A DNA stretch of 64,000 nt from Elainella sp. Prado103 (GTDB taxonomy: Bacteria; Cyanobacteriota; Cyanobacteriia; Elainellales; Elainellaceae): the NCBI GenBank assembly GCA_025454395.1, contig JALOOM010000011.1, positions 1 through 64,000 of the forward strand, in the 5' to 3' direction. Shown here one piece after another: positions 29,224 to 63,110 of the stretch (the stretch's first letter is position 1; the number at the start of each line of letters is the position of its first letter). Under the pieces are notes generated by a model that worked only from the letters and a program-made list of their open reading frames with translations, made no database searches and was not told the origin of the DNA. The position numbers and the translations under genes were made by a program.

Positions 29224-29279
29224 AGTCATTTGCTGCTAGTCATTTGGTGCTAGTCATTTGCTGCTAGTCATTTGCTGCT
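29224..29279 (-). repeat. 14-bp tandem repeat spanning the cinA stop codon
   Basis: AGTCATTTGCTGCT occurs at 29224, 29238 (one change), 29252 and 29266, with a decayed fifth copy at 29280. On the minus strand the first copies encode the last residues of CinA (LLAAND) and its TAG stop (29264-29266). Later copies lie in the spacer shared with the convergent RTX gene. Confidence 0.9.
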
Positions 29280-30529
29280 AGTAATTTGCGACGCAACAAA
29301 TCTAAGACTGTACAGAGGCTTAACCAACGGATGAATTCTCGATCGCGTGCTCCAAATTGATAGCAGAAGCTTTCTACTTGACCATTGGGAGCCGCGATCC
29401 CCAGGTAAACCAATCCGACTGGCTTCGTATCGGTGCCCCCATCCGGGCCGGCAATTCCAGTGATACTCAGACCCCAATCGGCCTTCAGTCTTTCCCGCAC
29501 ACCCGCAGCCATCTGTTGGGACACCGGGTCACTGACAGCACCTTGTTCTGCCAGATCGATCTCCCGCACGCCCAGTAAATCTACCTTGACCTGATTGTCA
29601 TAGGAGATTACGCCACCCCGAAAATAAGCCGAACTGCCGGATACATGGGTTAAGTAAGCCCCTAAGCCCCCACCAGTGCAGGATTCTGCTACCGCTACGG
29701 TTTGCCGAGCTTGTTTGAGCAGGGTGCCTACAACCGAAGCCAAACTATCATGATCCATACCGTAATAGTCTGTCCCAGTCAGGCTAACAATCTCCTGCTG
29801 CATTGGTTCAATCAGAGCGATCGCCTCTGCTTCGGTGGGTGCTTGAGCTGAGATTCGCAGCCTTACTTCCCCTTTGCCAGCATAGGGAGCTACCGTCGGA
29901 TTGGTTGACCTCAACTGAGTGACTACCTTTTCCGCCAAGTTGGATTCGCCAATCCCCCAAAATCGCAATGTGCGACTGTAGATAACACCCTGTCCCCAAC
30001 CTTGCTGACGGAGATAGGGAACTGCGGTTTCCCGCCACATCACCTGCATTTCGCTGGGCACACCGGGAAAGGTCAGAATGGTTAAACCGGGACGGGGCTG
30101 CCAGATCATGCCTGGAGCACTGCCGGTTGGGTTCGGCAAAATCTCTGCGCCTTGAGGGAGCAAGGCCTGCTTGCGATTACTGGGAGACATGATCCGCCCC
30201 CGGCGAGCGAATTTGGCCTCAATGTCTGCCAAAATTTCGGGATGTTCTATCAGGGGGGTTTGAAAAAAATCAGCCAATGCGGCCGTGGTCAGATCATCGG
30301 GAGTTGGGCCTAAACCGCCGGTGAAGATCAGACAGCGAGAACGTTCACAGCCGATCGCCACTGCTTTCTGGAGTCGCAGCACATTATCACCAACCACCGT
30401 TTGATAGTAGTGAGGAATTCCCAACTGGGCCAACTCTTGGGCGAGAAACTGAGCATTGGTATTGAGAATTTCTCCCAGCAGCAGTTCTGTCCCTACAGAG
30501 ATTACTTCGGCCGCATTGGTTTCACTCAT
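29264..30529 (-). CDS. cinA: CinA, competence/damage-inducible protein A
   Basis: 421 residues from ATG 30529 (MSETNAAEVISVGTELLLGE). The N-terminal domain is MoCF/COG1058-like (GTELLLGEILNTN, FTGGLGPTPDDLT), with ADP-ribose pyrophosphatase activity known in homologues. The C-terminal CinA_C domain (VAVAESCTGGGLGAYLTHVS, VSGSSAYFRGGVISYDNQVK, GIAGPDGGTDTKPVGLVYL) is an NMN deamidase in homologues, linking it to NAD recycling. The protein is full length. The glycosyltransferase-like gene follows its 5' end at 26 bases, on the same strand, so the two may share a transcript. Its last codons are part of a 14-bp repeat. Confidence 0.95.
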   Translation of the reverse strand: MSETNAAEVISVGTELLLGEILNTNAQFLAQELAQLGIPHYYQTVVGDNVLRLQKAVAIGCERSRCLIFTGGLGPTPDDLTTAALADFFQTPLIEHPEILADIEAKFARRGRIMSPSNRKQALLPQGAEILPNPTGSAPGMIWQPRPGLTILTFPGVPSEMQVMWRETAVPYLRQQGWGQGVIYSRTLRFWGIGESNLAEKVVTQLRSTNPTVAPYAGKGEVRLRISAQAPTEAEAIALIEPMQQEIVSLTGTDYYGMDHDSLASVVGTLLKQARQTVAVAESCTGGGLGAYLTHVSGSSAYFRGGVISYDNQVKVDLLGVREIDLAEQGAVSDPVSQQMAAGVRERLKADWGLSITGIAGPDGGTDTKPVGLVYLGIAAPNGQVESFCYQFGARDREFIRWLSLCTVLDLLRRKLLAAND

Positions 30530-30555
30530 AGCAAATCGCAGAACAGAAGAGAGGC

Positions 30556-31605
30556 TTATTGAGATTTGGCATGTTTCCGAACGCACCAACTGGTGTAGCT
30601 CAGGAGCAAGGTAGCGGCGATCGCATAGGTCAACCCACTGGGAATGCCAGAAAATGCGAGAGCGAGGCTACCGACCCATAGGGTTAGGGCGTAAATAAAG
30701 AGAACGGTCAGCCGGTGCGATAACCCCGCATCCAGCAAGCGGTGGTGTAAGTGGCGCTTATCGGCAATAAAGGGAGATTTACCGTTGCGTAATCGATCCA
30801 GAATCACCGCCGACATATCGAGTAGTGGCACCGCCAAAATCAGCATGGGAAGCAGCACCGCCACCGTCGTCACACTCTTCACCAGTCCAATCACCCCGAC
30901 TGCTGCGAGCGTGAACCCCATGAAATAGGCCCCGCCATCTCCCATGAAAATCTGAGCCGGATTGAAGTTGTAGCGCAAAAAGCCAAATGCTCCGCCTGCC
31001 AGAGCCGCGACAATCAAAGCTGCTGCGGGTTGATGCATAAACAAACAGACGATCAGCATAATGACGGCGGCAATTCCAGAAACCCCGGCCGCCAGACCAT
31101 CTAAACCATCGATCCAATTGATCGCGTTTGTCATGCCCACTAACCAAGTGACGGTGACCGGCAGACTAATCCAAACCGGCAGGGAAACCAACCCCACAAA
31201 CGGGATCGTCAAAAACTCAATTTGCACACCTGCTTGCCAGGCCAGACTCGCCGCTAATACTTGCAACAGCAAGCGCAAAAACGGCGATAGATTGAACAGG
31301 TCATCCGCCAGACCGATCAGGAAAAAGGCCACTCCGCCGATCGTGACACCCCAGATTTCGTACTCCTTATCCGGCGGCAACACGCCAAAGCCACCCGCCC
31401 ACCAAACGACTAAGAGTGCTAATAGAACCCCCAGAAAAATTGAGACCCCGCCCAGTCGAACCATCGGACGCTGATGCACCTTACGCCCACCGGGAGGGTC
31501 ATAATAGCCACTGCGCAAGCCAATTTTCTTGACGATCGGTGTCGTAAGCAGCACAACCAGTGCAGAAATGACGAATGCAGCCAGATGGTAAAACTGAGGG
31601 GGCAT
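30556..31605 (-). CDS. MraY/WecA-family phospho-sugar transferase
   Basis: 349 residues, about ten membrane helices, cytoplasmic-membrane enzyme. It would transfer a phospho-HexNAc from a UDP-sugar to polyprenyl phosphate, starting a polysaccharide or other glycan. Family motifs are GGRKVHQRPMVRLGGVSIFL, GLADDLFNLSPFLRLLLQ (catalytic DD), TNAINWIDGLDGLAAG, FMGDGGAYFMG and HLHHRLLDAG. The HLHHRLL version is typical of WecA-like GlcNAc-1-P transferases. I start at ATG 31605 because an upstream TTG (31647) has no merit. It precedes cinA by 26 bases on the same strand. Confidence 0.92.
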   Translation of the reverse strand: MPPQFYHLAAFVISALVVLLTTPIVKKIGLRSGYYDPPGGRKVHQRPMVRLGGVSIFLGVLLALLVVWWAGGFGVLPPDKEYEIWGVTIGGVAFFLIGLADDLFNLSPFLRLLLQVLAASLAWQAGVQIEFLTIPFVGLVSLPVWISLPVTVTWLVGMTNAINWIDGLDGLAAGVSGIAAVIMLIVCLFMHQPAAALIVAALAGGAFGFLRYNFNPAQIFMGDGGAYFMGFTLAAVGVIGLVKSVTTVAVLLPMLILAVPLLDMSAVILDRLRNGKSPFIADKRHLHHRLLDAGLSHRLTVLFIYALTLWVGSLALAFSGIPSGLTYAIAATLLLSYTSWCVRKHAKSQ

Positions 31606-32105
31606 CGGAAAATGGTAGGGAATGTACAACAGAATAACCAAAGCCAAATGTGGCCAAGTTTTACTTGCCCGAAAGTAGTTTTAACACAGGATTTCGATCT
31701 GGTGATTAGATTTTTTTAATTTCAACCATTCTCTTTCAGCCATTCTCAGTCATTCAAGATCAGCCATTCAAGAAAAGACAAAACCCAAGCTACAAACGGG
31801 CAAGCAAAGCGCACTATTCATCTTACGAGCCAAGGGGTCAACCCAGTCAAGCGAAACTCTCGCTAAATTGGCTGCGAGCACTATCAAAGGGGAAAGAATC
31901 AAGGGGCAAAGAATGAACAAAAAGTAGCGAAGAATGGGGAAGGAATGGGCAAACAAGTGGCAGCGTGAAGAAAATGTAGTGATCGTCCCGGTTCTTAAGA
32001 TAACCACCCTGAAAGCCATGCTCCTAGAGAAGAGCGAGTCCTGCCTTCAATTTGTTTCATGAGACACCAGGCAGGCTCTAGCAAAACAAAAAGTTGTTGT
32101 AATTT
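31606..32105. other. Intergenic region with small direct repeats
   Basis: No gene recognised; a frame at 31768-32019 on the minus strand has no family signal and low-complexity start. CAGCCATTC occurs three times in 31736-31770 (repeat of about 17-31 bases). An AT-rich stretch at 31700-31730 could hold a promoter for the upstream gene. Confidence 0.45.
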
Positions 32106-32402
32106 CTAGTTTTCATAACTAATGGAGGAAATGGGGGCATCTACCATTGTCCAATGATCACCATAGGCAGACCAAACCTCCGCATCATTCCATTCATTGA
32201 TGACATAGGATCGCTGAGTCATCTCAGACATGTAACCCACATAATGATTCATTAAAAAGTAGACCGCCATCATTCCAGCCGCCGCTGTCGAAACCAGAAA
32301 ACCAGCAAGCATTAAAGAAAATTCGCGGCGTTGAATGGCTTCCTGCATCAGGTGCAGTGCCCATGCCACGAGCCCAACTACGACAACTAGAATAAAAACC
32401 AT
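32106..32402 (-). CDS. Small membrane protein, unknown
   Basis: 98 residues with two membrane helices (residues 2-19 VFILVVVVGLVAWALHLM and about 28-52 FSLMLAGFLVSTAAAGMMAV), then a soluble tail (EMTQRSYVINEWNDAEVWSA). ATG 32402 is the only reasonable start. No family is recognised. It could be a conserved cyanobacterial protein. Separated by about 190 bases from hisF, which is on the same strand upstream. Confidence 0.65.
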   Translation of the reverse strand: MVFILVVVVGLVAWALHLMQEAIQRREFSLMLAGFLVSTAAAGMMAVYFLMNHYVGYMSEMTQRSYVINEWNDAEVWSAYGDHWTMVDAPISSISYEN

Positions 32403-32595
32403 TTCTTAAAGGGTGTAATGAATTTTAATATTTACACATATTAACAAACTCTCAGAAAGCTGTCTCTATCTGTAAGCACCAAAAGGCTGAGACTTTCAAT
32501 GAGAGATCGCAATCACCCCAGTAAGTCTAGGTTAAGGTTACAAAATTTTTCAGACGATCGCACGCCTGAATGCTTAAATTAATCGCTAAATTTCT

Positions 32596-33366
32596 TCACA
32601 GATGACGGACGGGCACCTGTCGATCGGCTAAATATTGTTTAATTTCTGCGACAGTTAGTTGACCATAATGCAGCAAAGAAGCGAGTAGCGCTGCTTCGGC
32701 CTTGCCTGCCGTCAGGGCTTCATGAATATGCTGGCAGTTGCCTGCACCTCCAGAGGCGATGACGGGAATTTGCACCTGTTCAGCGATCGTGCGGGTGAGT
32801 GCTAAGTCATAGCCTGCCTGCGTGCCATCAGCATCCATACTGGTTACCAACAGTTCGCCTGCCCCCCGTTGCTCCACCTCTTTAGCCCAGGTGATTGCAT
32901 CAATGCCAGTGTTATCCCGCCCACCCCGCACATAAACATCCCAGCCAGGGTTCTCTGGATCGGTGCGTCGTCTCGCATCGATCGCCACTACGATGCATTG
33001 ATTGCCGAATCGCTCGCTCGCTCGGTTAATAAAATCTGGATCTCTGACGGCCGTGGAGTTAATGCTGACCTTATCCGCTCCAGATCTTAACAGTTTTTTA
33101 ATCGTTTCTAAGGATTGGATCCCGCCGCCCACTGTCAAAGGAATAAAGACCTGTTCGGCAGTGCGATAGACCACATCAAAAATAATGTCTCGATCTTCAT
33201 GGGTAGCAGTGATATCTAGAAACACGAGCTCATCCGCCCCAGCCTGGTTATAAATTTGCGCTAGTTCGACCGGATCACCCGCATCTCGTAGGTTGACAAA
33301 ATTCACCCCCTTCACCACTCTTCCAGCTTTGACATCCAGGCAGGGCAAAATTCGTTTGGCAAGCAT
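32596..33366 (-). CDS. hisF: Imidazole glycerol phosphate synthase, cyclase subunit
   Basis: 256 residues, the normal length. HisF makes imidazole glycerol phosphate and AICAR from PRFAR, using ammonia from HisH, in histidine synthesis. Family motifs: [19 protein letters not shown] (catalytic D11), [49 protein letters not shown] (D130), [18 protein letters not shown], and VIASGGAGN phosphate site. Full active site is present. It starts at ATG 33366 and is divergent from petP at 33541. HisH is not in this window. Confidence 0.97.
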
Positions 33367-33540
33367 AGGTTCTTCGGCGTTGGTTTCAGCAGAGTTTTGG
33401 AGCGGTGGTATAGAAAGTCTGTGCGATCGGAGGAGGTTCGTCGTTAAAGGTTCAAAAACCTCTATTAGCCTCTCAGAATAGCGTAATTACGGACAAGACA
33501 CTGATATATTGGTTCATGGTCTATCCTTTGTGGAGTGGAG

Positions 33541-33735
33541 ATGGAAATCGGTCAAAAGGTGCGTGTGCGGCGGTTGCGCGATCGTTCACCCAAAGAAGTC
33601 ATTGCACGCTTGGGCAAAACAGGTGTGATTGAGCAATACAAAATGGTTGATGGCAGCGGTGTTGGGGTTGTGGTCAAATTTGACGATAATTTCAAGACTT
33701 GGTTTTTCGAAGATGAATTAGAGCCATCTCAGTAG
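33541..33735 (+). CDS. petP: PetP, cytochrome b6f complex subunit (DUF2862)
   Basis: 64 residues from ATG 33541 (GTG 33535 is an alternative, with GGAGTGGAG just before). Motifs VRVRRLRDRSPKEVIARLGK, DGSGVGVVVKFDDNFKTWFF and EDELE are those of the cyanobacterial PetP/DUF2862 family. PetP is a small soluble subunit, bound to the cytosolic face of cytochrome b6f, reported to affect stability and cyclic versus linear electron flow. The fold is SH3-like and small size is expected. It is divergent from hisF. A hairpin with T-run lies about 110 bases downstream. Confidence 0.88.
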   Translation: MEIGQKVRVRRLRDRSPKEVIARLGKTGVIEQYKMVDGSGVGVVVKFDDNFKTWFFEDELEPSQ

Positions 33736-33843
33736 TGGGGGTGGACGCGAACGGAAACACAGGCAGCCTCAGTCAGCAGTGCTTTTCCTGGTTTTCGAGT
33801 TCAAGCCTGTCTAGTTTCAATCTGCATCGTATGGCAATCATGA

Positions 33844-33902
33844 GGGGATAGCTGGGGCATTCGGTGGAAGTTTACTTCCATCAGGCGAGGTATCCCCTTT
33901 TT
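33844..33902 (+). terminator. Branched hairpin and T-run after petP
   Basis: GGGGATA at 33844-33850 pairs with TATCCCC at 33891-33897, followed by TTTTT at 33898-33902. Inside, TGGAAG-TTTA-CTTCCA (33865-33880) forms a second perfect stem. The location after petP and the T-run suggest a Rho-independent terminator. Confidence 0.55.
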
Positions 33903-34001
33903 GGCGATCGTTAAGATGTCGTTCAAGAGGTCGATCGTTAGGATGAGGATGGAGTCGAGGCTAGTAACAGCAATTCGATCGGCTGCGGCTAGTTCGCGAT
34001 C

Positions 34002-34046
34002 TCAATTCCTGTCAGGTCAATTCCTGTCAGGTCAATTCCTGTCAAA
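34002..34046. repeat. 15-bp tandem repeat upstream of ArsA-like gene
   Basis: TCAATTCCTGTCAGG occurs at 34002 and 34017, with a third copy (two changes) at 34032. It ends about 34 bases before the ATG at 34080. Confidence 0.85.
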
Positions 34047-34079
34047 TAAAAACAGCCTGAATCAACTAGGACAGCGTGT

Positions 34080-35174
34080 ATGGCATTCGTTTTGACGTTT
34101 TTGGGCAAGGGGGGCACCGGCCGAACCACCCTAGCAATTGCGGCGGCAAAGCAGTTGGCCGCCCAAGGACAGCGAGTTTTATTCATCAGTCAAGATGGCA
34201 GCCCAGCTTTGTCTCTATTGCTAGGAACCGAGGTGGGAACCGAACCACAATCGATCGCCCCGAATCTGAGTGGGGTGCAGTTGCGATCCACCGTATTGCT
34301 GGAGCAGAACTGGGAAGAGCTGAAAAAGCTAGAAGCTCAATACCTGCGCTCACCCTTCTTCAAGGCCGTTTATGGACAAGAACTGGGAATTTTACCGGGC
34401 ATGGATGATGCTCTCGCGCTAGATGCGATTCGGCGGTATGAGAACAGCGGCTCCTATGACACGATCGTGCTGGACGGGAAGGGCGATCAGTCTACCCTGC
34501 GCATGTTAGGCACACCGGAGATCGCCAGTTGGTATGTGCGCCGATTCCGACAGGTGTTTGCTGACTCTGATTTGGGCAAAGCCATTTCGCCGTTTGTGCA
34601 GCCAGTGGCAGCGGCCGTGCTAAATGTGAACTGGAGTGGGGATCTATTTTCGCAACCGGAAGCGAATCAGATGAACAACCTGCTGGAACAGGGAAAAGCC
34701 GTGGTGAATAATCCCAATCGGATGGCGGCTTTTTTGGTGACGACTGAGGCTGCCGATGCCCTCGCCACAGCTCAATATCTTTGGGGCGGAGCCCAGCAAA
34801 TCGGCTTAACGATCGCTGGTGTGCTATTAAATCAATCGAATGCCACTGAAACGATCGCCTCTCAGTTTGCTCCCTTATCCATTTCCGCCATTCCGACTCG
34901 ATCGGCAGATTGGCAGCCCTTAATCGCGGCATTACCGAACCTCACTCAGGCTGCTCAGGCCCCACAGCCCATCCGAATCGATGTGGCAGAAGGGAAAATT
35001 TACTTATTTCTACCAGGGTTTGATAAAAAGCAAATTAAGCTGACCCAGTACGGCTTAGAAGTGACGATCGAAGCGGGCGATCAACGCCGTAACATTGCCC
35101 TACCACCGGAGTTGAGGGGGCGGCAAGTGACAGGAGCTAAATTCCAGGAAGGTTACCTCATTATTTCCTTGTAG
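34080..35174 (+). CDS. ArsA/Get3-like ATPase with C-terminal HSP20-like domain
   Basis: 364 residues. FVLTFLGKGGTGRTTLAI is the deviant P-loop of the ArsA/Get3/MinD group, with the signature lysine (K10) present. The usual second lysine (GKT) is arginine (R15). The switch region reads VLDGKGDQSTLRMLGTPE rather than DTAPTGHTLRLL. The final 85 residues (IRIDVAEGKIYLFLPGFDKK, QYGLEVTIEAGDQRRNIALP) are an HSP20/alpha-crystallin-like beta domain, known from the ArsA_HSP20 family. In plants and cyanobacteria such proteins may target membrane proteins; the client is unknown. No arsenic genes are nearby. Confidence 0.85.
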   Translation: MAFVLTFLGKGGTGRTTLAIAAAKQLAAQGQRVLFISQDGSPALSLLLGTEVGTEPQSIAPNLSGVQLRSTVLLEQNWEELKKLEAQYLRSPFFKAVYGQELGILPGMDDALALDAIRRYENSGSYDTIVLDGKGDQSTLRMLGTPEIASWYVRRFRQVFADSDLGKAISPFVQPVAAAVLNVNWSGDLFSQPEANQMNNLLEQGKAVVNNPNRMAAFLVTTEAADALATAQYLWGGAQQIGLTIAGVLLNQSNATETIASQFAPLSISAIPTRSADWQPLIAALPNLTQAAQAPQPIRIDVAEGKIYLFLPGFDKKQIKLTQYGLEVTIEAGDQRRNIALPPELRGRQVTGAKFQEGYLIISL

Positions 35175-35832
35175 GAGATTATTTCTGAGACTTGGATCGG
35201 TCATGCTCCCTCCCACTCAGGTAACTCGTCATCCGGACAGCTTGGGGTGATCTTCCGAAATTGCCCCGAATTTGCCTGTGGAATGAGAAAAGCCAAATTT
35301 CAAATTCTGTTTAAGTTTGGTGACTCAGCTTCCAGATCGACTGAGGAATAGGTTATGGTGCAAATCTATATCAACTCCATGATTCTGATTGACTGACAAA
35401 TCTTTCCCCCTCATTCCTCAATCCCTTCTCCCACCAGGGCTACCTTGTACACACAAGTCGTTCCGATCCTCCCTAACCCTCCTTAACCAGGAGGGAACTG
35501 AACCCAAAGTCTGCAAAGTCCCCTTAAAAAGGGGGATTTGGGGGGATCAATCAGCGATTTAGCAGCAACTCAGCGATGTGTGTACAGCGATGTGTGTACA
35601 CAGTAGCCCCACCAGGGCGAAGGGGCTGCCAATCAAATATTGGTTCGCAGGCTCCTCGCCCGTTCTGGGAGAGGGGTTGGGGTGAGGTCTGAAGCTTGAG
35701 AGTTTACTTTTTCAGCCTTTGACTTTTGCTGTTTGTCCTCCGGGATTCAGCCGCCTGGATTCAGCGCTTTGCCATTGCACCTGAGTTGGTGCAGGCTAAT
35801 CTCCCGATCGGTTGGTTCCTCACGATCCCTGT
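35175..35832. other. Long intergenic region with nested repeats
   Basis: No gene visible in about 650 bases. 35430-35616 holds a MITE-like element and its flanking duplication (listed separately). The stretch 35608-35690, with a CTCGCCCGTTCTGGGAGAGG block, resembles intergenic repeats that I know from several cyanobacterial genomes. The element sits inside that repeat. AT-rich blocks near 35290-35390 contain no genes. Confidence 0.5.
35439..35607. mobile_element. 169-bp MITE-like element with 9-bp target duplication
   Basis: The ends GCTACCTTGTACACACA (35439-35455) and TGTGTGTACACAGTAGC (35591-35607) are inverted repeats (15 of 17 pair). CCCACCAGG lies directly outside both ends, at 35430-35438 and 35608-35616, as a perfect 9-bp direct repeat. 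The interior carries CCTCCCTAACCC..., CCCCTTAAAAAGGGG hairpin (35521 region) and GGGGGATTTGGGGGG, and a 14-bp duplication GCGATGTGTGTACA at 35573 and 35587. No coding sequence. Nine-base duplications are made by IS1, ISKra4 and others, so the parent transposase is unknown. Confidence 0.75.
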
Positions 35833-35874
35833 CAGTGATTGGTTTTCAGTGATTGGTTTTCAGTGATTGGTGTA
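35833..35874. repeat. 14-bp tandem repeat just upstream of the P4H fusion gene
   Basis: CAGTGATTGGTTTT at 35833 and 35847 and a third partly matching copy at 35861, ending 7 bases before the ATG at 35881. It may thus cover the leader or promoter. Confidence 0.85.
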
Positions 35875-35880
35875 AAGCTT

Positions 35881-37149: not shown

Positions 37150-37223
37150 CAGGTAATTAGCAATCCTGGACAGTCTCAAATCGGCCTAAAATAAGAATTG
37201 TGAACTTTCTTGAATTCAGACCC

Positions 37224-40095: not shown

Positions 40096-40122
40096 GATGG
40101 GCAAGAAGCGCTAGGAAGTAGC

Positions 40123-40776: not shown

Positions 40777-41478
40777 ATGACTGTTGATCTCGCGAAGAGT
40801 ACGACTTCCTATGCAGCAACCGATGCGGCAGCCCTCAGGCAAGTCCTAAGGACTGTGACGGCAGAAAGCTGTCCCAAGGTGTTCAATTTTCACATGCACA
40901 CGGTTTATTCAGATGGTCGATTGACCCCAGAGCAGTTGATCGATCAAGCGCTCAGCATCGGGCTCCAGGGCTTCGCCATTACCGATCATCACAGTATTCA
41001 GGGCTATTACCGGGCCCAAGCACACCTGGCACAATGTCAGCCCACTGAGGGCGATCGATCCCTGCCTCAACTCTGGTCTGGGGTGGAAATCAACGCCAAG
41101 CTGCTCAATGAAGAGGTGCATATTCTGGGTTATGCCTTTCAGCCCCACCATGCGGCTCTAGAACCTTATTTGCAACAAGGCACAACCACCGGACTTGCCT
41201 ATCAAGCAGCCCAAGTGATTGCTGCCATCCAAACAGCGGGTGGAGTGGCCGTGTTAGCCCATCCAGCCCGATACCGTCGATCGCCCCGTGAACTAATTCC
41301 GGCGGCAGCAGCTCTGGGCATTGACGGCGTAGAAGCCTACTATGCCTATGCCAATCCTTCGCCCTGGCAGCCGAGCCCTCGCCAAACTGCAGAGGTGTCG
41401 AGCTTGGGCGATCAACATCGGTTGTTAAAAACTTGTGGCACGGATACCCACGGCATGAGCCTGCTGCATCGGCTATAG
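40777..41478 (+). CDS. PHP-domain phosphoesterase-like protein
   Basis: 233 residues. After a short lead, the PHP metal motifs appear in order: FNFHMHTVYSDGRLTPEQL (HxH), FAITDHHSIQG, LWSGVEINAKLLNEEVHILG, VAVLAHPARY and CGTDTHGMSLLHRL. This fits the COG0613-type 'predicted metal-dependent phosphoesterase', which in some relatives hydrolyses 3',5'-nucleotides or oligonucleotides. The substrate here is unknown. The end codons are part of a tandem repeat. Start ATG 40777. Confidence 0.88.
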   Translation: MTVDLAKSTTSYAATDAAALRQVLRTVTAESCPKVFNFHMHTVYSDGRLTPEQLIDQALSIGLQGFAITDHHSIQGYYRAQAHLAQCQPTEGDRSLPQLWSGVEINAKLLNEEVHILGYAFQPHHAALEPYLQQGTTTGLAYQAAQVIAAIQTAGGVAVLAHPARYRRSPRELIPAAAALGIDGVEAYYAYANPSPWQPSPRQTAEVSSLGDQHRLLKTCGTDTHGMSLLHRL

Positions 41479-41511
41479 CTGCATCAGGCTATGGGCTGCA
41501 TCAGGCTATGG
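41463..41511 (+). repeat. 17-bp tandem repeat spanning the PHP gene stop
   Basis: The last codons of the PHP gene (CTGCATCGGCTATAG, 41464-41478) are followed by two exact 17-base copies of GCTGCATCAGGCTATGG (41478-41494 and 41495-41511). The array thus begins with the gene's own final codons and stop. Confidence 0.85.
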
Positions 41512-41677
41512 GCTACAGATCGGTGGGGAAGGGGGTCAGTAAGGCAATCCCATCCCTGCCAGTGGATCGCATTGAACCAGAAGGTCGAATTTTAAGTTGA
41601 ATCAGAGACAGCAAACCGTTTGTCCCAAATGCCTCTAAAATAGTCTGGATTTAAACGCACAACTCTGGCTCTGATCT

Positions 41678-44938
<3,261 letters not shown>

Positions 44939-44965
<27 letters not shown>

Positions 44966-45113
44966 AACGATGGTACTAATAATGGTGCCCATAATGGTAC
45001 TAATAATGGTGCCCATAATAGCCAATCCAGGAGTATGTTGGCAGTTAGAATAATGGTGCTAATAATAGTGCTAATAATGGTGCCAACAATAGTGCTAATA
45101 ATGGTGCAAGAGA
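44939..45113 (+). repeat. 83-bp displaced copy of the carB end plus 24-bp repeats
   Basis: CCAATCCAGGAGTAT occurs at 44939, within carB (IQEYIGG and stop), and again at 45022. The sequence around each copy is similar over about 50 bases, including a GGTTAA/AGTTAG stop region. Between and after them, 24-base units of AATAATGGTGCYCATAATGG type repeat in tandem. Confidence 0.85.
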
Positions 45114-50302: not shown

Positions 50303-50590
50303 ATGCAAATCCCCGGAATTTCTGACACCCTAACCCCACCTGACGATCGGTTGGCTGATATCAGCACAGCAGAGTTAGCTCAAGCTCTGGCTGCTCGTTT
50401 AGCCATTGCACCCAGCGACTGGCATCGTCTCAAAGCCAACCGTCAAGCCAGAGCAGGCGAACAAGCGGCTACCGCCTTAGTTTATCTCCTGAAAAATCAA
50501 AACGAAGAAGCCCTGGCCCGCCTGCAACAAGCAACGGGCTGGCTCGATCGATCCATTTCGGCCCCTCCTTGCCCAACCCATGGTCATTAA
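50303..50590 (+). CDS. Small conserved hypothetical protein
   Basis: 95 residues, helical, no membrane segment. ADISTAELAQALAARLAIAP, then DWHRLKANRQARAGEQAATA and LLKNQNEEALARLQQATGWL. The last part is common in cyanobacterial small proteins of unknown function. ATG 50303. Its stop codon region is in a 20-bp repeat, see below. Confidence 0.65.
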   Translation: MQIPGISDTLTPPDDRLADISTAELAQALAARLAIAPSDWHRLKANRQARAGEQAATALVYLLKNQNEEALARLQQATGWLDRSISAPPCPTHGH

Positions 50591-50625
50591 AGGCTCCTGA
50601 AAATAATTAAAGGCTTCTGAAAATA
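50586..50625 (+). repeat. 20-bp direct repeat spanning the stop of the 50303 gene
   Basis: ATTAAAGGCTCCTGAAAATA at 50586 and ATTAAAGGCTTCTGAAAATA at 50606 (one change). The TAA stop codon (50588-50590) is in the first copy. Confidence 0.85.
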
Positions 50626-54932: not shown

Positions 54933-55042
54933 TTGGTTAGCCAATCGGTCAGAAGTCTGAACTGAGACTCCATCACCTGAAACTCCATCAACTAAGACTC
55001 CGTTAATAGTATATCCGAGCTGAATCGAGTGCATCGGTGGGT

Positions 55043-56029: not shown

Positions 56030-56311
56030 GATGAGTGAGGCGAAACGAGTTGTAGTAGAGTCTCTGGAGATAGCTGAATTGGATCCATGCGGTGAGAGGA
56101 TGCAGATTAATCCACCTAATTTCATCAATCAACGCCGAATTTACCCATTTTCCCTCAGCAGCCCACCCGTTGAATTGCCCTAATTATCCAGTCTATGTTG
56201 AAACGATTAAAGGCACTGAACTCTTGGACGGCATCCAGCCCATGCTCGATCGCTCCTGTAATGAGGCTGAACTCTAGGATCGATCGCTCCTCAAATGGGC
56301 ATTGGGGGCTG

Positions 56312-57145: not shown

Positions 57146-57411
57146 ACAAGTTCCCTGCTCTAATGAACTTTCGTAAACGATTGCCAACTTTGACAACAGG
57201 GGGTTCCCTGGTAAAGTTGACGATGCTATTTTGAATACAGGCACAAACAAGTCAACCCACTCAACGAAATCAACTTCTAGTTCTAGTTCAAAGTCAAGTT
57301 CATTTAGTTCTAGTTCAAAGTCAAGTTCATTTTGGAGTTTATCTTCAGGTCTGTTTCAAGTTCAGTTCATGTTCGTTTTTTAGATTCAAGCCTGTGCCTC
57401 CCGCTGTGAGT

Positions 57412-57576
57412 CTACACAGCATACAGTTGCCGGAGAGTATTCCCCACAATGTACGTGCGATCGTGTTTGGCGAATTGCTTACACATCCACCAAAGCTCTA
57501 GGTCTCCTAAAGAGACGGGGATCGCTTCTAAATCCAGGTAAATGTTGTGTTGTGCGTTCGTGTTACTTTCGTGTAG
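57412..57576 (-). pseudogene. Short open frame, protein-like remnant without start codon
   Basis: On the minus strand, between a TAA (57577-57579) and a TAG (57412-57414), 54 codons are open with no ATG, GTG or TTG before the core. The sequence IYLDLEAIPVSLGDLELWWM, CKQFAKHDRTYIVGNTLRQL is protein-like, not low complexity. It may be the end of a lost gene or a frameshifted small gene. I do not recognise it. Confidence 0.4.
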
Positions 57577-57614
57577 TTACAAGACCATAACTCAAATAAG
57601 CAACTCTGACGATT

Positions 57615-57647
57615 GAAGGATCTAGCATCTATACAGCTAGATCCTTC
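57615..57647. terminator. Perfect 12-bp hairpin between convergent genes
   Basis: GAAGGATCTAGC (57615-57626) and GCTAGATCCTTC (57636-57647), with a nine-base loop. No T-run on either strand. It lies 125 bases downstream of the aminotransferase stop. Terminator or palindromic repeat. Confidence 0.45.
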
Positions 57648-57771
57648 TCGCTATGTACGTACTATCTGTGCAGCTAAACGATCACGAGCTAAACGATCAC
57701 GATGAATGAGCACGCAAGTTGCTCACGTTCATTGCCTTAAAGATTCGCCTTGCTTACGGGTCTCACAAGTC

Positions 57772-58971
57772 TCACGAAACAAGGGCAGGTGCATAGCGAA
57801 TATTAGCCTGCTTCAGACGCTGGAGGGCTTGTTCAAGTCGATCGCAGTCGGCAATTAAGCTAATGCGCACATACCCTTCCCCACCCTGACCAAAAGCATG
57901 ACCAGGCGTGACCACAACCCCGGTTTGCTGAAGCACGGAGAAGGCAAAGTCAGTGGAATTGGTACCGGGAGGACAGGGCACCCAGAGATACATGGTGGCA
58001 TTTGTTTTGGGAATGTTCCAGCCCAACTCGCCTAACCCGGCGATCAAAAAATCGCGTCTTGCCCGATAGCGAGCTTGCACTTCATGGAGGTACATATCTG
58101 GCAGATTTAATGCGGTTTCGGCCGCGGTTTGCAGTGCAGTGAAAATACCGTAATCCAAATTGGTCTTAAGCGTGCGTAAGCCCTGGATAATGTGGCGATT
58201 ACCAACAACAAAACCAACCCGCCAACCCGCCATATTGTAGGTTTTGGAGAGGGTATGAAATTCAACGCTAATCTCTTTCGCCCCCGGGATTTCTAGTAAG
58301 CTAGTGGGTTGATAGCCGTCGAAGGCGAGTTCGGCGTAGCACAGGTCATGCACTAGCATAATTTCATATTTGCGGGCGAATGCCACCACTTCTTCAAAAA
58401 ACTCGCGGGGGGCAGTGGCCGCAGTCGGATTACTGGGATAGTTGAAATAGAGCATCTTAGCTTGCTGCGCAACTTGCTCTGGGATTGCACTCAAGTCGAT
58501 CAACCAATCCTGTTCCGGTTTTAAGATGAGCTGATGAATTTTGCCCCCTGCAATCAACGGCCCACGGAAATGGGCGGGATAGGCAGGGCTAGGCACGAGA
58601 ACCAAATCTCCTGGATTGATATAGGCGATCGCCAAGTGAGCCAGTCCTTCTTTTGAGCCCAGCAGCGGTAGGGCTTCTCCCTCTGGATCAAGCTTGACTC
58701 CGTAGCGGCGAAAATACCAGTTGGTGATTGCAGTTCGGAAGCTAGCAGTGCCTTCAAACGGTGGGTAACCATGATTGGCTGGATTTTGCAGCGCTGTTAT
58801 TGCTGCTTCCACGACAGGGGCTGGAGTTGCCCCATCCGGATTGCCCATCCCTAAATCGATTAGATCCAATCCTTGTTCACGGGCTCGCGCTTTCAGTTCA
58901 TCTAAGCGAGCAAATACATAAGGCGGCAGGCTGCTTAATCGATCGGCCGGGGTAATCCAGGGGAGGTTCAT
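57772..58971 (-). CDS. Class I/II aminotransferase (aspartate / LL-diaminopimelate-type)
   Basis: 399 residues, PLP-dependent. Motifs: IDLGMGNPDGATPAPVVEAA, ANHGYPPFEGTASFRTAITN, NYPSNPTAATAPREFFEEVV, MLVHDLCYAELAFDGYQPTS (PLP Asp and Tyr), FHTLSKTYNMAGWRVGFVVG (Schiff-base Lys about 240) and YVRISLIAD (substrate Arg). The sequence type is often annotated as aspartate aminotransferase or LL-diaminopimelate aminotransferase in cyanobacteria; substrate cannot be fixed by eye. Start ATG 58971. It lies 35 bases downstream of the GldA-like gene, on the same strand, so they may be co-transcribed. Confidence 0.92.
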   Translation of the reverse strand: MNLPWITPADRLSSLPPYVFARLDELKARAREQGLDLIDLGMGNPDGATPAPVVEAAITALQNPANHGYPPFEGTASFRTAITNWYFRRYGVKLDPEGEALPLLGSKEGLAHLAIAYINPGDLVLVPSPAYPAHFRGPLIAGGKIHQLILKPEQDWLIDLSAIPEQVAQQAKMLYFNYPSNPTAATAPREFFEEVVAFARKYEIMLVHDLCYAELAFDGYQPTSLLEIPGAKEISVEFHTLSKTYNMAGWRVGFVVGNRHIIQGLRTLKTNLDYGIFTALQTAAETALNLPDMYLHEVQARYRARRDFLIAGLGELGWNIPKTNATMYLWVPCPPGTNSTDFAFSVLQQTGVVVTPGHAFGQGGEGYVRISLIADCDRLEQALQRLKQANIRYAPALVS

Positions 58972-59006
58972 GCTGGGTCATCCAGAAAAACAACAATCAG
59001 GTGAAG

Positions 59007-60221
59007 CTAGAGTGGAGTCGGATCGGTAGAGAGATCCGCTCGATAGGATTCGCGGGGTAAGGCTCTCACCTCAGCACAAGGCGCAGTTGTGGAAACCATA
59101 GCGGCCAGGAGGTGGGTCGGGTTGACTTCAAACGGTAGATGGTGAATATCTGAACCTGGATGGCAGGCGACTTCGGCCGATCGCGCCAAGTCTGCCAAGG
59201 TCACATCCATTAAGCCAAGATCCGCCAGACATTGAGGCAAGCCAATCTCACGATAAAACTTGAGCAACTGTTGACGGGCCGTAGCAGCCAGTAAATTGCC
59301 TTGTACTAATTCTTCCAGCCGCAGTTGCACCAAAATGCCATAGGCTACTTTATCGCCATGCAGGGTACCATGGCTTTGGAGAAGATGGGTCAACCCATTA
59401 TGAACGGCATGAGCTGCCACTGTGCGACATTGGGCTCCGCCTAATCCACCAATCACACCAGCCATTAATACCGTTGCATCCACCACTTCCCGCCAGACCG
59501 AACTGCCTGGAGCTTGCAGGGCATGAGCCGATTTTTGCAGCAGCAGATCCCGCAAGACTCTGGCCTGTTGAACAGCAGCAATGATCAGGGTTTGATCGGA
59601 GTGACCACTGCTGACCGAGGCTTCGTACCATTTGGCGATCGCATCTCCAATCCCAGCTACTAGGGTATGGGATGGGGCGGTTTGCACCAAGGCATAATCG
59701 AGCAACAGCAACTGAGGGCAGGTCGTCAGGGCCACATCGTACAAAAATGCGCCTTGATCAGAATAGACATTCGAGAGGGCAGTCCAGGCGGCACAAGTGG
59801 CGGCCGAAGTCGGCACGGTGACCACGGGTAAGCCGGTCTGATGGGCAACCAGCTTGGCGGCATCTAGGGCTTTCCCGCCCCCGATCCCAATCACGAGGTC
59901 AGCCCTGTGATCGGCGATTACAGCTCGCAGCCTGGCTAAATTGGCTTCACTACATTCTCCACCGTAGGAAGCATGGCTGAGGTTCAAACCCTGTTGAATT
60001 GCCATTGCCTCAATGGATTCCTGCCCGATCGCCCAAGTTTGAGAACCTGCCACTACCAGCGGGCGTTGTCCCAACTGGGTAATTGCCGCAGCGGCAGTTG
60101 AGAACAGTCCTTGCCCGCGAATCACTTGAGCCGGTGCAATGGCCAGGGTGGCGATCGGTGCAGGCGAACCTGTGGCTGCAATGGTAGATGTAATGTCAGA
60201 GGTGCGTGTTAAATCCGCCAT
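59007..60221 (-). CDS. GldA-type iron/zinc-containing alcohol dehydrogenase
   Basis: 404 residues. NAD-binding stretch VIGIGGGKALDAAKLVAHQT, then TVPTSAATCAAWTALSNVYS, LVAGIGDAIAKWYEAS (metal Asp), VAAHAVHNGLTHLLQS and GTLHGDKVAYGILVQLRLEE (two metal His). These match the glycerol dehydrogenase family of group III alcohol dehydrogenases. The substrate is unknown (glycerol or another polyol/aldehyde). ATG 60221. The aminotransferase gene follows after 35 bases. Confidence 0.9.
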   Translation of the reverse strand: MADLTRTSDITSTIAATGSPAPIATLAIAPAQVIRGQGLFSTAAAAITQLGQRPLVVAGSQTWAIGQESIEAMAIQQGLNLSHASYGGECSEANLARLRAVIADHRADLVIGIGGGKALDAAKLVAHQTGLPVVTVPTSAATCAAWTALSNVYSDQGAFLYDVALTTCPQLLLLDYALVQTAPSHTLVAGIGDAIAKWYEASVSSGHSDQTLIIAAVQQARVLRDLLLQKSAHALQAPGSSVWREVVDATVLMAGVIGGLGGAQCRTVAAHAVHNGLTHLLQSHGTLHGDKVAYGILVQLRLEELVQGNLLAATARQQLLKFYREIGLPQCLADLGLMDVTLADLARSAEVACHPGSDIHHLPFEVNPTHLLAAMVSTTAPCAEVRALPRESYRADLSTDPTPL

Positions 60222-60286
60222 AGATGTGTCGTCACGACTACATGCTGAGGTAAAGAATACTTTACTACACTCAACCTGTTTTCATC

Positions 60287-60841
60287 CTAACTATTCTGAT
60301 TTGGGATCGGAGCGATCCCCTCGGCAGTAGGAATGGGGGGTAATTTGGCTAAATTGGCGGGAATAATCTCGATGCTCATTTGCTCATCCTCTCGGCTGTA
60401 GAGCGATCGGCGCACTTGCCCAAGCAGCAAGGGTTCAGAGACCCCCGGTTCAGGATGCAGGATGGTGCGGGCTCGGATCGTCAGCAAATTCTCTCCCCGG
60501 CCCAGCCGACCTGGCGAGAACAGATCATTCGCAGCTTGGCGGAGGGTGGACTCTAACTCAGTGGCCGTGATGGTGGGTGGCACTGCAATCACCGCTTGCG
60601 TCGCCCCAGAATCATATACTGTCGAAAACTTGACTGCTCCTGGAATTACGGTGCGGGTAAACGGCACCAAACTGAGGGCAAATAAGCCGCTGGTCAGCAC
60701 AATCATGAAACCCGTTACGCCCACCAATCGAAAGCGAATCCCCCATTTCACCAGGAAGCCCAGGAGAGTCAGCGCAGCAAAAACCAGGGTGGCAATGCCT
60801 GCCCATTGGGTGTAGGTCAGGAAAGCATCGGGTGTCAACAT
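60287..60841 (-). CDS. ycf51: Ycf51-family protein (DUF2518)
   Basis: 184 residues with two membrane helices at about 10-35 (YTQWAGIATLVFAALTLLGF) and about 40-60 (GVTGFMIVLTSGLFALSLVP), then a soluble part (VIAVPPTITATELESTLRQA, RGENLLTIRARTILHPEPGV). This is the layout of Ycf51/DUF2518, conserved in cyanobacteria and some algal plastids. Function unknown. Start ATG 60841; divergent from upp. Confidence 0.85.
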   Translation of the reverse strand: MLTPDAFLTYTQWAGIATLVFAALTLLGFLVKWGIRFRLVGVTGFMIVLTSGLFALSLVPFTRTVIPGAVKFSTVYDSGATQAVIAVPPTITATELESTLRQAANDLFSPGRLGRGENLLTIRARTILHPEPGVSEPLLLGQVRRSLYSREDEQMSIEIIPANLAKLPPIPTAEGIAPIPNQNS

Positions 60842-60983
60842 AGCGATCGGTTTAGCCTATGGGTTAAGTGTTCAAAAAGGGATAGCGAAGACTGTCCTTG
60901 ATCCTATGCTAATTCAGCCCCTTTTGGGGGAGCGCGACAAATCCTGATATGCTAAATAGCCAGCCCTTCACTCCACCCGATCG

Positions 60984-61637
60984 ATGAATGTACAACTACG
61001 GGTTTATGTTCCGCCTCATCCATTAATCAAGCACTGGCTAGCCGTCGCTCGGGACGCTGCAACTCCCTCTGTTTTATTTCGTAGTGCAATGACTGAGCTG
61101 GGGCGCTGGCTCACTTATGAAGCAATTCGGGAGTGGTTGCCGACCATCGACACCCAGGTCAACACGCCGCTCGCTCCTTGTGCAGCTACCTTTATTAATC
61201 CAGAAGTGCCGATCGCCGTTGTGCCGATCCTGCGGGCTGGGCTGTCGCTGTTAGAAGGTTCTCAAGCGTTATTGCCGTTGGCTGCGGTCTATCACATTGG
61301 CGTAGTGCGTCACGAAGAAACTCTGGAACCTAGCATTTATCTCAATAAGTTTCCGGAGCAGTTTGACCCGCAAACCCGCGTGTTGATCACTGAACCGATG
61401 CTAGCCACGGGTGGCACAATTACAACCGTGATGGGAGAACTCACCCAACGGGGAATTGATCCCGCTATGGTGCGCATTATTTCAGTAGTGACTTCACCCC
61501 CCGCCTTACAAAAGTTGAATTTGGCCTATCCGGGCTTGACGATCTATGCTGCTACGATCGATGAGACGGTGAATGAAAAAGGCTATATTGTTCCAGGCTT
61601 GGGGGATGCAGGCGATCGAACCTTTGGCACTTTTTAA
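60984..61637 (+). CDS. upp: Uracil phosphoribosyltransferase
   Basis: 217 residues. Makes UMP from uracil and PRPP in pyrimidine salvage. Motifs: VYVPPHPLIKHWLAVARDAA, VVPILRAGLSLLEGSQALLP, RVLITEPMLATGGTITTVMG (PRPP loop), VVTSPPALQKLN and YIVPGLGDAGDRTFGT at the C-terminus. Full length. Start ATG 60984. A small glycine-rich gene follows after 21 bases. Confidence 0.96.
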   Translation: MNVQLRVYVPPHPLIKHWLAVARDAATPSVLFRSAMTELGRWLTYEAIREWLPTIDTQVNTPLAPCAATFINPEVPIAVVPILRAGLSLLEGSQALLPLAAVYHIGVVRHEETLEPSIYLNKFPEQFDPQTRVLITEPMLATGGTITTVMGELTQRGIDPAMVRIISVVTSPPALQKLNLAYPGLTIYAATIDETVNEKGYIVPGLGDAGDRTFGTF

Positions 61638-61658
61638 AAGAAAATCAAGGGAGGCAGC

Positions 61659-61991
61659 ATGAGTCAGCAAGGTGGAAATTTTTGGGGCGGTTTTTTGCTG
61701 GGCAGCGTGGTTGGCGGGGCAGTTGGAGGTGTCATTGGAGCGTTGGCCGCCTCGCGGCTATCTCCGGCTGAAGCCAGCAAACCGGAAGGCAGCAAAGAAG
61801 TCAAGTCGGTGAAAAAACGTCCGCTCAAGACCGTTCCAGCCGATCAATCTATGGAAGTGGCACGCCGGGGTTTGGAAGACAAAATTGCGCAACTGAATGA
61901 TGCGATCGATGATGTGCGGCAGCAGTTGGGCTCGGTGAATGGCACCGTGAAGGAACCAGAACGCGATCGAACGATCGTCCCTGAACCATAA
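61659..61991 (+). CDS. Small glycine-zipper membrane protein
   Basis: 110 residues. One glycine-rich helix at about 8-32 (FWGGFLLGSVVGGAVGGVIG) then a basic segment (KKRPLKTV) and a coiled coil (LEDKIAQLNDAIDDVRQQLG). Good ribosome-binding site AAGGGAGG 6 bases before ATG 61659. Function unknown; similar small proteins are common in cyanobacteria. It follows upp by 21 bases and may be in its operon. Confidence 0.75.
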   Translation: MSQQGGNFWGGFLLGSVVGGAVGGVIGALAASRLSPAEASKPEGSKEVKSVKKRPLKTVPADQSMEVARRGLEDKIAQLNDAIDDVRQQLGSVNGTVKEPERDRTIVPEP

Positions 61992-62080
61992 CCTGAACCA
62001 TACAATATTCTGGCTCCCTATTTCCTTCACCTCTATGCCCTGATCCTGCCAGGTCACGCACAGGAGAGCATTCAAAACCC

Positions 62081-62566
62081 ATGGGAACTGAAATTGAGCG
62101 CAAATTTTTGGTGCGCGGAGAAGCTTGGCGATCCCTTGCTGAAGGGATACTTTATCGGCAGGGATATCTCTCGATCGAGCCCGATCGCACCGTGCGCGTA
62201 CGGATCGCAGGCAATCAAGGCTACCTGACCATTAAAGGGCTTTCTGACGGAATCCGCCGCGCTGAATATGAGTATGCTATCCCTATCCAGGATGCCACCG
62301 AACTGCTGGATACCCTGTGCCAGCCTCCCCTGATCGAAAAACAGCGTTACCGAATTGCTTGGGGCGACGCTATTTGGGAAGTGGATGAGTTTCTCGGCGA
62401 CAATCAGGGGCTGATCGTGGCAGAGATTGAGTTGAACCATCCTGATCAGCCTTTCGACCGGCCGGATTGGATCGGAGCAGAAGTATCTCATGATCCCCGC
62501 TACTTCAATGCTAGCCTCGTCAAATATCCCTTTTGTCAGTGGCGCGCCAATGCTTCGCAGCCCTGA
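62081..62566 (+). CDS. CYTH-domain protein (triphosphate tunnel metalloenzyme)
   Basis: 161 residues. MGTEIERKFLVRGEAWRSLA has the ExExK signature. RTVRVRIAGNQGYLTIKGLS, RRAEYEYAIPIQDATELL, EKQRYRIAWGDAIWEVDEFL and LIVAEIELNHPDQPF supply the basic and acidic tunnel residues. Homologues are tripolyphosphatases or related enzymes; the true substrate is unknown. Normal length for the short CYTH group. It lies 89 bases after the glycine-rich gene on the same strand. Confidence 0.9.
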   Translation: MGTEIERKFLVRGEAWRSLAEGILYRQGYLSIEPDRTVRVRIAGNQGYLTIKGLSDGIRRAEYEYAIPIQDATELLDTLCQPPLIEKQRYRIAWGDAIWEVDEFLGDNQGLIVAEIELNHPDQPFDRPDWIGAEVSHDPRYFNASLVKYPFCQWRANASQP

Positions 62567-62612
62567 ATTCGACTCTTACTTGAGCTTTGATCAGCTTTGA
62601 TCAACTCTGAGG

Positions 62613-62861
62613 CTATCCACCGATTTGAATCTGCCAACCCCAGAAAGTGCTGGCAACACCTACTTCTATGCCATAGGGTTGAATGAACGCTCGGATCGCT
62701 GAGTCAGATACTAGCGGGTCAGAATGGGCAACATCGGCCGAAGGTCGGCATGGAGCCCGATCGACCTCAGAATGAGGGGGAAAATCTAGACTGCCTGTCG
62801 GATGCGTTGAACGATGCTGAGACTCGACCAGATGCTGAGACTCGACCGATAGAGATTTCAT
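62613..62861 (-). CDS. Possible small protein, not recognised
   Basis: 82 codons from ATG 62861. The C-terminal part DPLVSDSAIRAFIQPYGIEV, GVASTFWGWQIQIGG looks protein-like, while the first 15 residues (SVESQHLVESQH) come from a 24-base repeat. It could be real or chance. It lies between two genes on opposite strands. Confidence 0.35.
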   Translation of the reverse strand: MKSLSVESQHLVESQHRSTHPTGSLDFPPHSEVDRAPCRPSADVAHSDPLVSDSAIRAFIQPYGIEVGVASTFWGWQIQIGG

Positions 62862-63042
62862 AAACTGATGTCCTATGTCTTGCTGTGTCTGCCCTTTACT
62901 TTAGTCAGCAAGCGATGAAGTCACCTCTACCGTCGGCCAGATACCAGCCCCGATCGAATAAATGTAGCAGTTTTGATCCAGCGCTTGTATTTGCTGTTCG
63001 GAATGGTAGGGCGGTCGTTCTTGATTGTGAGGACATTGCCAA

Positions 63043-63110
63043 GGCTGGAATCAACCAGAGGCTGGAATCAACCAGAGGCTGGAATCAACCAGAGGCTGGA
63101 ATCAACCAGA
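63043..63110 (-). repeat. 17-bp tandem repeat spanning the holB stop codon
   Basis: GGCTGGAATCAACCAGA four times without change at 63043, 63060, 63077 and 63094. On the minus strand the last copy holds the final holB codons (TCT GGT) and the TGA stop (63102-63104). The other copies lie beyond the gene. Confidence 0.95.

What the first reader, a model, noticed from the sequence alone, without database searches (positions are those of the whole stretch)
29224..63110. Stop-codon-spanning tandem repeats at the 3' ends of unrelated genes
At least four genes end inside the first copy of a short direct repeat that continues into the spacer: cinA (14-bp units, 29224-29279), the PHP gene (17 bp, 41463-41511), the 50303 gene (20 bp, 50586-50625) and holB (17 bp, 63043-63110). 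carB (83-bp displaced copy of its end, 44939-45113) and the Uma2 gene at 23511 (64-base-displaced copy plus 17-bp array, 23357-23473) show the same on a larger scale. Each unit includes the last codons and in most cases the stop. Most unit lengths (14, 17, 20, 83) are 3n+2, so successive copies put stops in other frames. This may be a genome-specific slippage habit, or a fail-safe stop or 3'-end signal. I know of no description of such gene-end-seeded repeats, but could not search.
Basis: seen in the sequence. Interest (0 to 1): 0.85.

Follow-up and report, generated by a model that had tools for sequence, protein, structure and literature searches.

The report
Short tandem duplications tolerated at gene ends
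This cyanobacterium's genome is rich in tandem copies of short stretches, mostly 9 to 17 bases, and those that happen to straddle a gene's stop codon probably do no harm because the first copy still ends the gene, so they look like a gene-end signal but are most likely tolerated leftovers.

Summary
The arrays are real: in the window five span a stop codon (cinA, PHP, carB, DUF6439, holB), and a displaced copy spans the Uma2 stop. A 1.77 Mb sample of the genome holds 910 tandem arrays (0.5 per kb; E. coli 1 in 50 kb), 695 with 9-17 bp units, mostly without a shared unit. 76 span a stop. The 3n+2 rule failed in a held-out sample (6 of 30, against 25 of 46 at first). Arrays inside genes are 3n (210 of 217); starts are avoided (14 spanned, 78 expected). 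Array borders reach about one unit into genes, rarely deeper. Arrays are about twice as dense near gene 3' ends; overall the stop zone does not differ significantly from the next 20 bp, though it does in long spacers. The five window arrays were found at none of 65 orthologous gene ends from 15 relatives. Best explanation: frequent short tandem duplication filtered by selection; a duplication that contains the stop is silent. A fail-safe stop or 3'-end signal is not supported. Stop-overlapping tandem arrays are already in print (heptamers in Xanthomonas, Nostoc, Beggiatoaceae). Open: the sharp fall above 17 bp and the 3'-end gradient.

The parts
29217..29289 (-). 14-bp x 5.2 array at the 3' end of cinA; copy 1 encodes conserved Leu-Leu-Ala-Ala, the stop TAG (29264-29266) is exposed in copy 2 by the 14-bp shift
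41463..41514 (+). 17-bp x 3.2 array at the 3' end of the PHP-domain gene (40777-41478); copy 1 holds the conserved last codons and the stop at the place used by relatives
44939..45102 (+). 83-bp x 2.0 imperfect repeat with 12/24-bp sub-arrays spanning the carB stop (44963-44965)
50586..50625 (+). 20-bp x 2.0 repeat spanning the stop of the DUF6439 gene (50303-50590); stop at the place used by several relatives
63042..63112 (-). 17-bp x 4.2 perfect array spanning the stop of holB (called 63102-63998, start end open at the window edge); C-terminus WEVTSG* stands where relatives have a different, mostly longer tail
23439..23555 (-). 53-nt copy pair (23503-23555 and 23439-23491, spacing 64, 85% identity) spanning the stop of the Uma2 gene (called 23511-24350)
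23389..23463 (-). 17-bp arrays downstream of the Uma2 gene

Best explanation
These are ordinary locus-private minisatellites, present at an unusually high density. Cells of this cyanobacterial lineage keep making tandem duplications of mostly 9-17 bp in local sequence (shown: size spectrum, units mostly unshared; inferred: replication slippage or misprocessed flaps as the cause, and that it still goes on), and some then grow by further slippage (inferred). Selection removes those that damage genes: arrays inside coding sequence are nearly all 3n, and start codons are avoided (shown as patterns; selection is the inferred cause). A duplication that starts within one unit upstream of a stop copies the stop along with it; the first copy still reads as the old gene end, so the protein is unchanged and the duplication is silent whatever its length (fits the border step at one unit, the stop lying in copy 1 in 60 of 78 cases, and PHP, DUF6439 and carB, whose stop stays at or close to the place used by relatives). 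Less often the frame shift of a tail duplication exposes a new stop in copy 2 or later (cinA) or the tail differs altogether (holB). No signal at the stop is needed.
For:: 910 arrays in 1.767 Mb; 217 wholly in CDS, 210 of them 3n; 586 wholly noncoding with periods spread over the three classes (219/196/171); 76 span a stop against 74.7+-6.6 for random placements touching noncoding DNA; 14 span a start against 78.4+-7.3 (40 rounds); border rate per 1000 positions 0.08 at -60..-30, 1.17 at -30..-15, 4.2 at -15..0, 3.7 at 0..10, 3.0 at 10..30, 2.0 at 30..60; a simulation that accepts only duplications leaving the protein unchanged gives the same step (0.08 at -30..-15, 0.94 at -15..0, 1 beyond); stop in copy 1 in 60 of 78 array-stop pairs; 65 orthologous loci from relatives show none of the window's arrays; 2 of 65 have a stop-spanning array of another unit (holB of G001, cinA of G002); a loose search for the five units in the 65 loci gave 4 loci with a match, each hundreds of bases from the gene end; 473 of 760 units (those of period 9-20) share no 10-mer with another (593 when shuffled); largest cluster 13; relatives have the same range of unit sizes.
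Against: A flat neutral model does not give the roughly twofold excess towards gene 3' ends: the null that allows at most one unit of overlap gives 29.7+-5.3 stop-spanning arrays (100 rounds) against 65 seen among the 650 eligible, and rates within 30 bp of stops exceed 30-150 bp 1.9-fold (P 8e-8). In spacers of 250 bp or more the stop zone stands out more locally: 5.06 against 2.41 at 10-30 bp (P 0.01), and 5.24 against 2.88 for strong gene calls with 150 bp or more (P 0.04); other classes and exact pairs show no significant step. Focusing of frame-shifted tails does not produce this. Lower constraint next to stops, or a mutational bias, must be added. There is no strain comparison, so ongoing turnover is inferred, not shown.
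Confidence: 0.78

Rival explanations
1. The arrays are a fail-safe stop device: repeated units with period 3n+2 put stops in all frames and catch readthrough.
For: 25 of 46 stop-spanning arrays of the first sample have 3n+2 periods (P 0.0006); a stop triplet recurs one period downstream in 64 of 78 cases; the next in-frame stop is a little nearer (median 28.5 against 39 nt; within 30 nt 53% of 76 against 43% of 1118).
Against: Held-out sample 6 of 30 (P 0.86); without the window 26 of 71 (P 0.11). Copying a unit that holds a stop repeats the stop by construction. 76 arrays at 1246 genes, and the five of the window are private to one genome.
Confidence: 0.04
2. Gene 3' ends are mutational hot spots for tandem duplication, for example through transcription termination, R-loops or collisions of transcription with replication, so arrays are born there more often.
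For: About twofold density of borders from -15 to +30 of stops against 30-150 bp (P 8e-8), also with exact pairs (1.56-fold, P 9e-4) and in pooled relatives (1.81-fold, P 0.02); in long spacers a local excess at the stop zone itself (2.1-fold, P 0.01); array midpoints per kb of noncoding DNA are 2.5 at 20-50 bp from a gene and 1.0 beyond 400 bp.
Against: Selection alone could give the gradient if DNA next to stops is freer than deeper spacers with promoters, terminators, small RNAs or uncalled genes. Over all spacers no significant step at the stop (P 0.10; exact pairs 0.54; relatives 0.71). Midpoint density between 50 and 400 bp is nearly level (1.8, 1.8, 1.6).
Confidence: 0.18
3. A mobile or dispersed repeat family inserts next to stop codons.
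For: Some units share 10-mers beyond chance (287 of 760 against 167 when shuffled); several of the printed members of the largest clusters hold CGATC.
Against: Largest unit cluster 13 of 760; at PHP and cinA the unit is the gene's own conserved end, so it was copied locally.
Confidence: 0.02

Closest known systems
G-rich heptameric repeats (GGGAATC and GGGGA(T/C)T) of Xanthomonas and Nostoc sp. PCC 7120 (Rehm et al. 2015, PMC4692102; abstract and passages seen)
   Same: Tandem arrays, under-represented in coding DNA, downstream of genes mostly within 50 bp of the stop codon and in some cases overlapping it; includes a cyanobacterium.
   Different: One G-rich 7-nt motif that forms quadruplexes; here units differ from locus to locus, 695 of 910 have 9-17 bp and period 7 occurs in 3 of 910.
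TAACTGA direct repeats of Beggiatoaceae, cyanobacteria and Bacteroidetes (MacGregor 2015, PMC4679880; passages seen)
   Same: [quoted passage not shown] stops in all three frames noted.
   Different: One fixed heptamer, in the BOGUAY genome mostly placed before start codons; here starts are avoided.
Bacterial minisatellites / VNTR loci (general knowledge)
   Same: Locus-specific unit, a few near-identical copies, mostly intergenic, differing between relatives.
   Different: Very high density (0.5 per kb) and a narrow unit size range with a sharp fall above 17 bp.
MIRU-VNTR loci of mycobacteria
   Same: Tandem repeats in the spacers of neighbouring genes.
   Different: 40-100 bp units of a dispersed family (PMC2734929, passages seen); that some overlap stop and start codons is recalled by me, not seen in a call.

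Membership tests
Minisatellite / VNTR | tandem array of a unit longer than about 6 bp | tested here: met
Minisatellite / VNTR | unit private to the locus | tested here: met
   met for most: 473 of 760 units share no 10-mer with another; largest cluster 13
Minisatellite / VNTR | presence or copy number varies between close genomes | tested here: met
   array at 5 of 5 loci in G000 and at 0 of 65 orthologous loci in relatives
Minisatellite / VNTR | copy number varies between strains of the species | not testable with these tools
   one genome per species held
Heptameric STRR / G-quadruplex repeats | 7-bp unit of fixed sequence | tested here: not met
   window units 14, 17, 83, 20, 17 bp; period 7 in 3 of 910
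TAACTGA repeats | unit TAACTGA | tested here: not met
   none of the five window units is TAACTGA; the genome was not searched for it
3'-end or fail-safe stop signal | position at the gene end conserved among orthologues | tested here: not met
   65 loci from 15 relatives
3'-end or fail-safe stop signal | period biased to 3n+2 | tested here: not met
   held-out 6 of 30; first sample 25 of 46
3'-end or fail-safe stop signal | effect on RNA 3' ends or readthrough | not testable with these tools
   needs RNA or reporter data

The most novel reading that the evidence does not exclude
This cyanobacterial family has a distinct duplication error or machine: it makes tandem copies of a sharply bounded length (9-17 bp, mode 14, a fall from 40 to 9 exact noncoding pairs between 17 and 18 bp) and does so about twice as often near gene 3' ends, which would point to a structure of fixed size, such as a replication primer or flap or a transcription bubble, as the template.
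Probability: 0.15. Interest if true: 0.65.

Novelty: new member of a known kind. Interest (0 to 1): 0.3.

Why it matters
It shows how stop-codon-spanning repeats can arise without any stop-codon signal, because a duplication that contains the stop is silent; that warns against reading gene-end repeats as regulatory. The high density and the bounded unit size make this lineage a promising natural assay for how bacteria make short tandem duplications.

Tried and rejected
3n+2 rule: strong in the first sample (25 of 46, P 0.0006), rejected on a held-out sample whose test was written in the notebook before it was analysed (6 of 30). Stop focusing (frame-shifted tail arrays capturing new stops): simulated; adds borders at -30..-15, not the excess at -15..0. 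End joining or lost flap processing as the cause: Ku was found in 0 of 24 genomes searched, own included, so Ku-dependent fill-in is unlikely; the PolA 5'-nuclease domain was found in 24 of 24, so its plain loss is not the cause. Hairpin or terminator role: stop-spanning arrays fold slightly better than shuffles (mean z -0.58, 12 of 76 below -2; stop controls 3 of 80), but a sample of intergenic arrays does so as much (mean -0.87, 15 of 79). Microhomology: pairs with no extra matched base are the largest single class below three copies (89 of 510 exact noncoding pairs of 9-17 bp, 131 of them with three or more copies), so none is required; not decisive. read '-' strand loci the wrong way round and is superseded. 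One search covered the five units with up to 3 mismatches in 15-20 bases (some patterns were cut short by my script); its 4 matching relative loci lie far from the gene ends. Paper searches returned nothing; others gave the papers cited, PMC2884548 (passages seen, no mention of stop codons) or nothing that looked relevant in the listing.
Full report
Observation. TRF and direct reading confirm the arrays. Pfam confirms the genes: CinA, PHP domain, DUF6439, DNA polymerase III delta subunit family (holB), carbamoyl-phosphate synthase large chain, Uma2. Five arrays contain the whole stop codon; at Uma2 a 53-nt stretch with the stop recurs 64 bases away. The organism is a cyanobacterium: the window is C84:1-64000 of a 5.84 Mb assembly in 157 contigs, and 13 of the 15 named CinA relatives found are cyanobacteria, four of them named Leptolyngbya or Leptolyngbyaceae (the own genome and near ones may be left out there).

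Genome-wide test. I sampled the window plus contig beginnings C1-C60 (discovery, 1.081 Mb, 60 stretches after dropping one of Ns) and C61-C80, C85-C104 (held out, 0.686 Mb, 40 stretches). Genes were called with a hexamer model written for this purpose (1246 genes; no Prodigal was at hand), arrays with TRF (score 50 or more, period 7 or more, overlapping rows merged): 910 arrays, 0.515 per kb, 695 of them with period 9-17. Markov sequence gave 0 in 218 kb; 50 kb of E. coli K-12 gave 1. Relatives gave 0.22 (G001), 0.34 (G002), 0.09 (G006) and 0.55 (G011) per kb in 100 kb each.

Where arrays lie. Wholly in CDS 217, of which 210 are 3n; wholly noncoding 586, periods 219/196/171 for 3n, 3n+1, 3n+2; stop-spanning 76; start-spanning 14; other partial overlaps 17. 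Uniform placement would give 29.3+-5.4 stop-spanning arrays; placement restricted to spots touching noncoding DNA gives 74.7+-6.6, so by that null there is no enrichment; starts are depleted (78.4+-7.3 expected). A stricter null that permits at most one unit of overlap with a gene's 3' end and none with a start (650 of 910 arrays eligible; 217 inside genes, 21 on 5' ends, 10 deeper than a unit and 12 near starts left out) gives 29.7+-5.3 against 65 observed. So the answer depends on the null, and the density profile is more telling.

Profile. Border rate per 1000 available positions, from 858 stops with at least 60 bp of spacer: 0.08 (-60..-30), 1.17 (-30..-15), 4.2 (-15..0), 3.7 (0..10), 3.0 (10..30), 2.0 (30..60), 2.1 (60..100), 1.6 (100..150). 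Exact pairs, independent of TRF: 0.0, 0.31, 2.56, 2.8, 2.33, 1.79, 1.61, 1.46. Pooled relatives (139 loci, 0.907 Mb, 213 arrays, 468 stops with at least 30 bp): 0.07, 0.57, 1.28, 1.28, 1.5, 0.97, 0.91, 0.44. Over all spacers the stop zone (-15..+10) does not differ significantly from the next 20 bp (86 against 51 borders, ratio 1.35, P 0.10; exact pairs 1.14, P 0.54; relatives 0.85, P 0.71), while the zone up to +30 exceeds 30-150 bp (1.89-fold, P 8e-8; exact pairs 1.56, P 9e-4; relatives 1.81, P 0.02) (availabilities there are derived from the rounded rates). Against this reading, by spacer length the stop zone exceeds 10-30 bp 2.1-fold in spacers of 250 bp or more (42 against 16, P 0.01), 1.07-fold at 120-250 bp (P 1.0) and 1.26-fold at 30-120 bp (P 0.49); for strong gene calls with 150 bp or more it is 1.82 (P 0.04), with exact pairs there 1.46 (P 0.25). 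So a local peak at the stop is not excluded; after this recount I lowered the best explanation from 0.80 to 0.78 and raised the hot-spot rival from 0.15 to 0.18. The step about one unit inside the gene is what a silent-duplication model predicts; the gradient is not, and needs either less constraint beside stops or more births there. The relatives' pool left out loci L170, L215, L242 and L243 and the named loci L131-L145, and counts about 3.6 kb twice (L217 in L253, the edge of L174 in L251).

Period classes. The 3n+2 claim: discovery 25 of 46 (window 5 of 5), held-out 6 of 30 against 27% expected, P 0.86; the two samples differ (P 0.01) and the combined distribution is not significantly unlike the intergenic one (P 0.09). 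I regard it as not replicated.

History. Gene ends were compared at 14 carB, 14 holB, 15 DUF6439, 13 PHP and 14 cinA loci, 65 of these 70 from relatives G001-G015 (TRF score 36 or more, -60 to +250 of the stop). Not examined: the fetched loci of more distant relatives (G016-G039), L163 and L203 of G014, fragments without the gene end, and hits without a fetched locus. None of the 65 shows the window's array; 23 of them have some array of their own in that zone. A loose search for the units in the whole loci matched 4 of 65, all hundreds of bases from the gene end. PHP ends LLHRL* where most relatives read LLQRL* or LLQRI*, and its unit is a copy of that coding end. DUF6439 ends HGH* as in G006, G008 and G009. 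CinA copy 1 encodes LLAA as in G001 (LLAARAD*) and the 14-bp shift makes the stop in copy 2. CarB ends close to the usual place (QEYIGG*). HolB ends WEVTSG* where most relatives run on with tails such as WEVTLM.... Two relatives have stop-spanning arrays of their own with other units (G001 holB, G002 cinA), which I read as parallel births.

Unit size. Exact noncoding tandem pairs by period: 9:48, 10:46, 11:42, 12:64, 13:83, 14:93, 15:86, 16:55, 17:40, 18:9, 19:11, 20:3, 21:1; coding: 9:56, 12:46, 15:73, 18:18, others from 10 bp up at most 4 each. Pooled relatives: 9:7, 10:13, 11:8, 12:11, 13:12, 14:12, 15:11, 16:5, 17:7, 18:3, 19:0, 20:0, 21:1 (which asked for matched runs of 10 or more). The fall from 17 to 18 is sharp in the own genome (P 9e-6 for 40 against 9, chosen after seeing it). 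I do not know its cause. Ku is absent and the PolA 5'-nuclease domain present in the 24 genomes searched, which speaks against two simple accounts.

Known relatives in print. Rehm et al. [quoted passage not shown] MacGregor 2015 (PMC4679880, passages) reports TAACTGA repeats overlapping the stop of an upstream gene in 13 ORFs and notes stops in all three frames. My searches listed no paper that I recognised as describing locus-private 9-17 bp arrays at gene ends in cyanobacteria; the library lacks most subscription journals, so this is no claim of absence.

Verdict. The gradient towards 3' ends, with a possible local peak in long spacers, and the size limit are the open points.

Noticed in passing
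window and L001-L020, L051-L130; relatives L022-L263 in part: Exact tandem duplications in noncoding DNA have a bounded unit size (rise to 14 bp, sharp fall above 17 bp); pooled relatives show a similar range.
   Followed up: partly
window 23565-23696: The Uma2 gene also carries an in-frame 21-bp x 6.3 array inside its coding region.
   Followed up: no
L239 and L242 (G001:C186:136485-137745): cinA of the same-genus genome G001 matches in two pieces, as if frame-shifted near residue 258; carB of G003 likewise in two overlapping pieces. Not checked whether mutation, small duplication or sequencing error.
   Followed up: no
L244-L263 (100 kb each of G001, G002, G006, G011): Array density differs about sixfold within the family (9 arrays in 100 kb of G006, 55 in 100 kb of G011), which could be tied to a repair or replication gene.
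   Followed up: no
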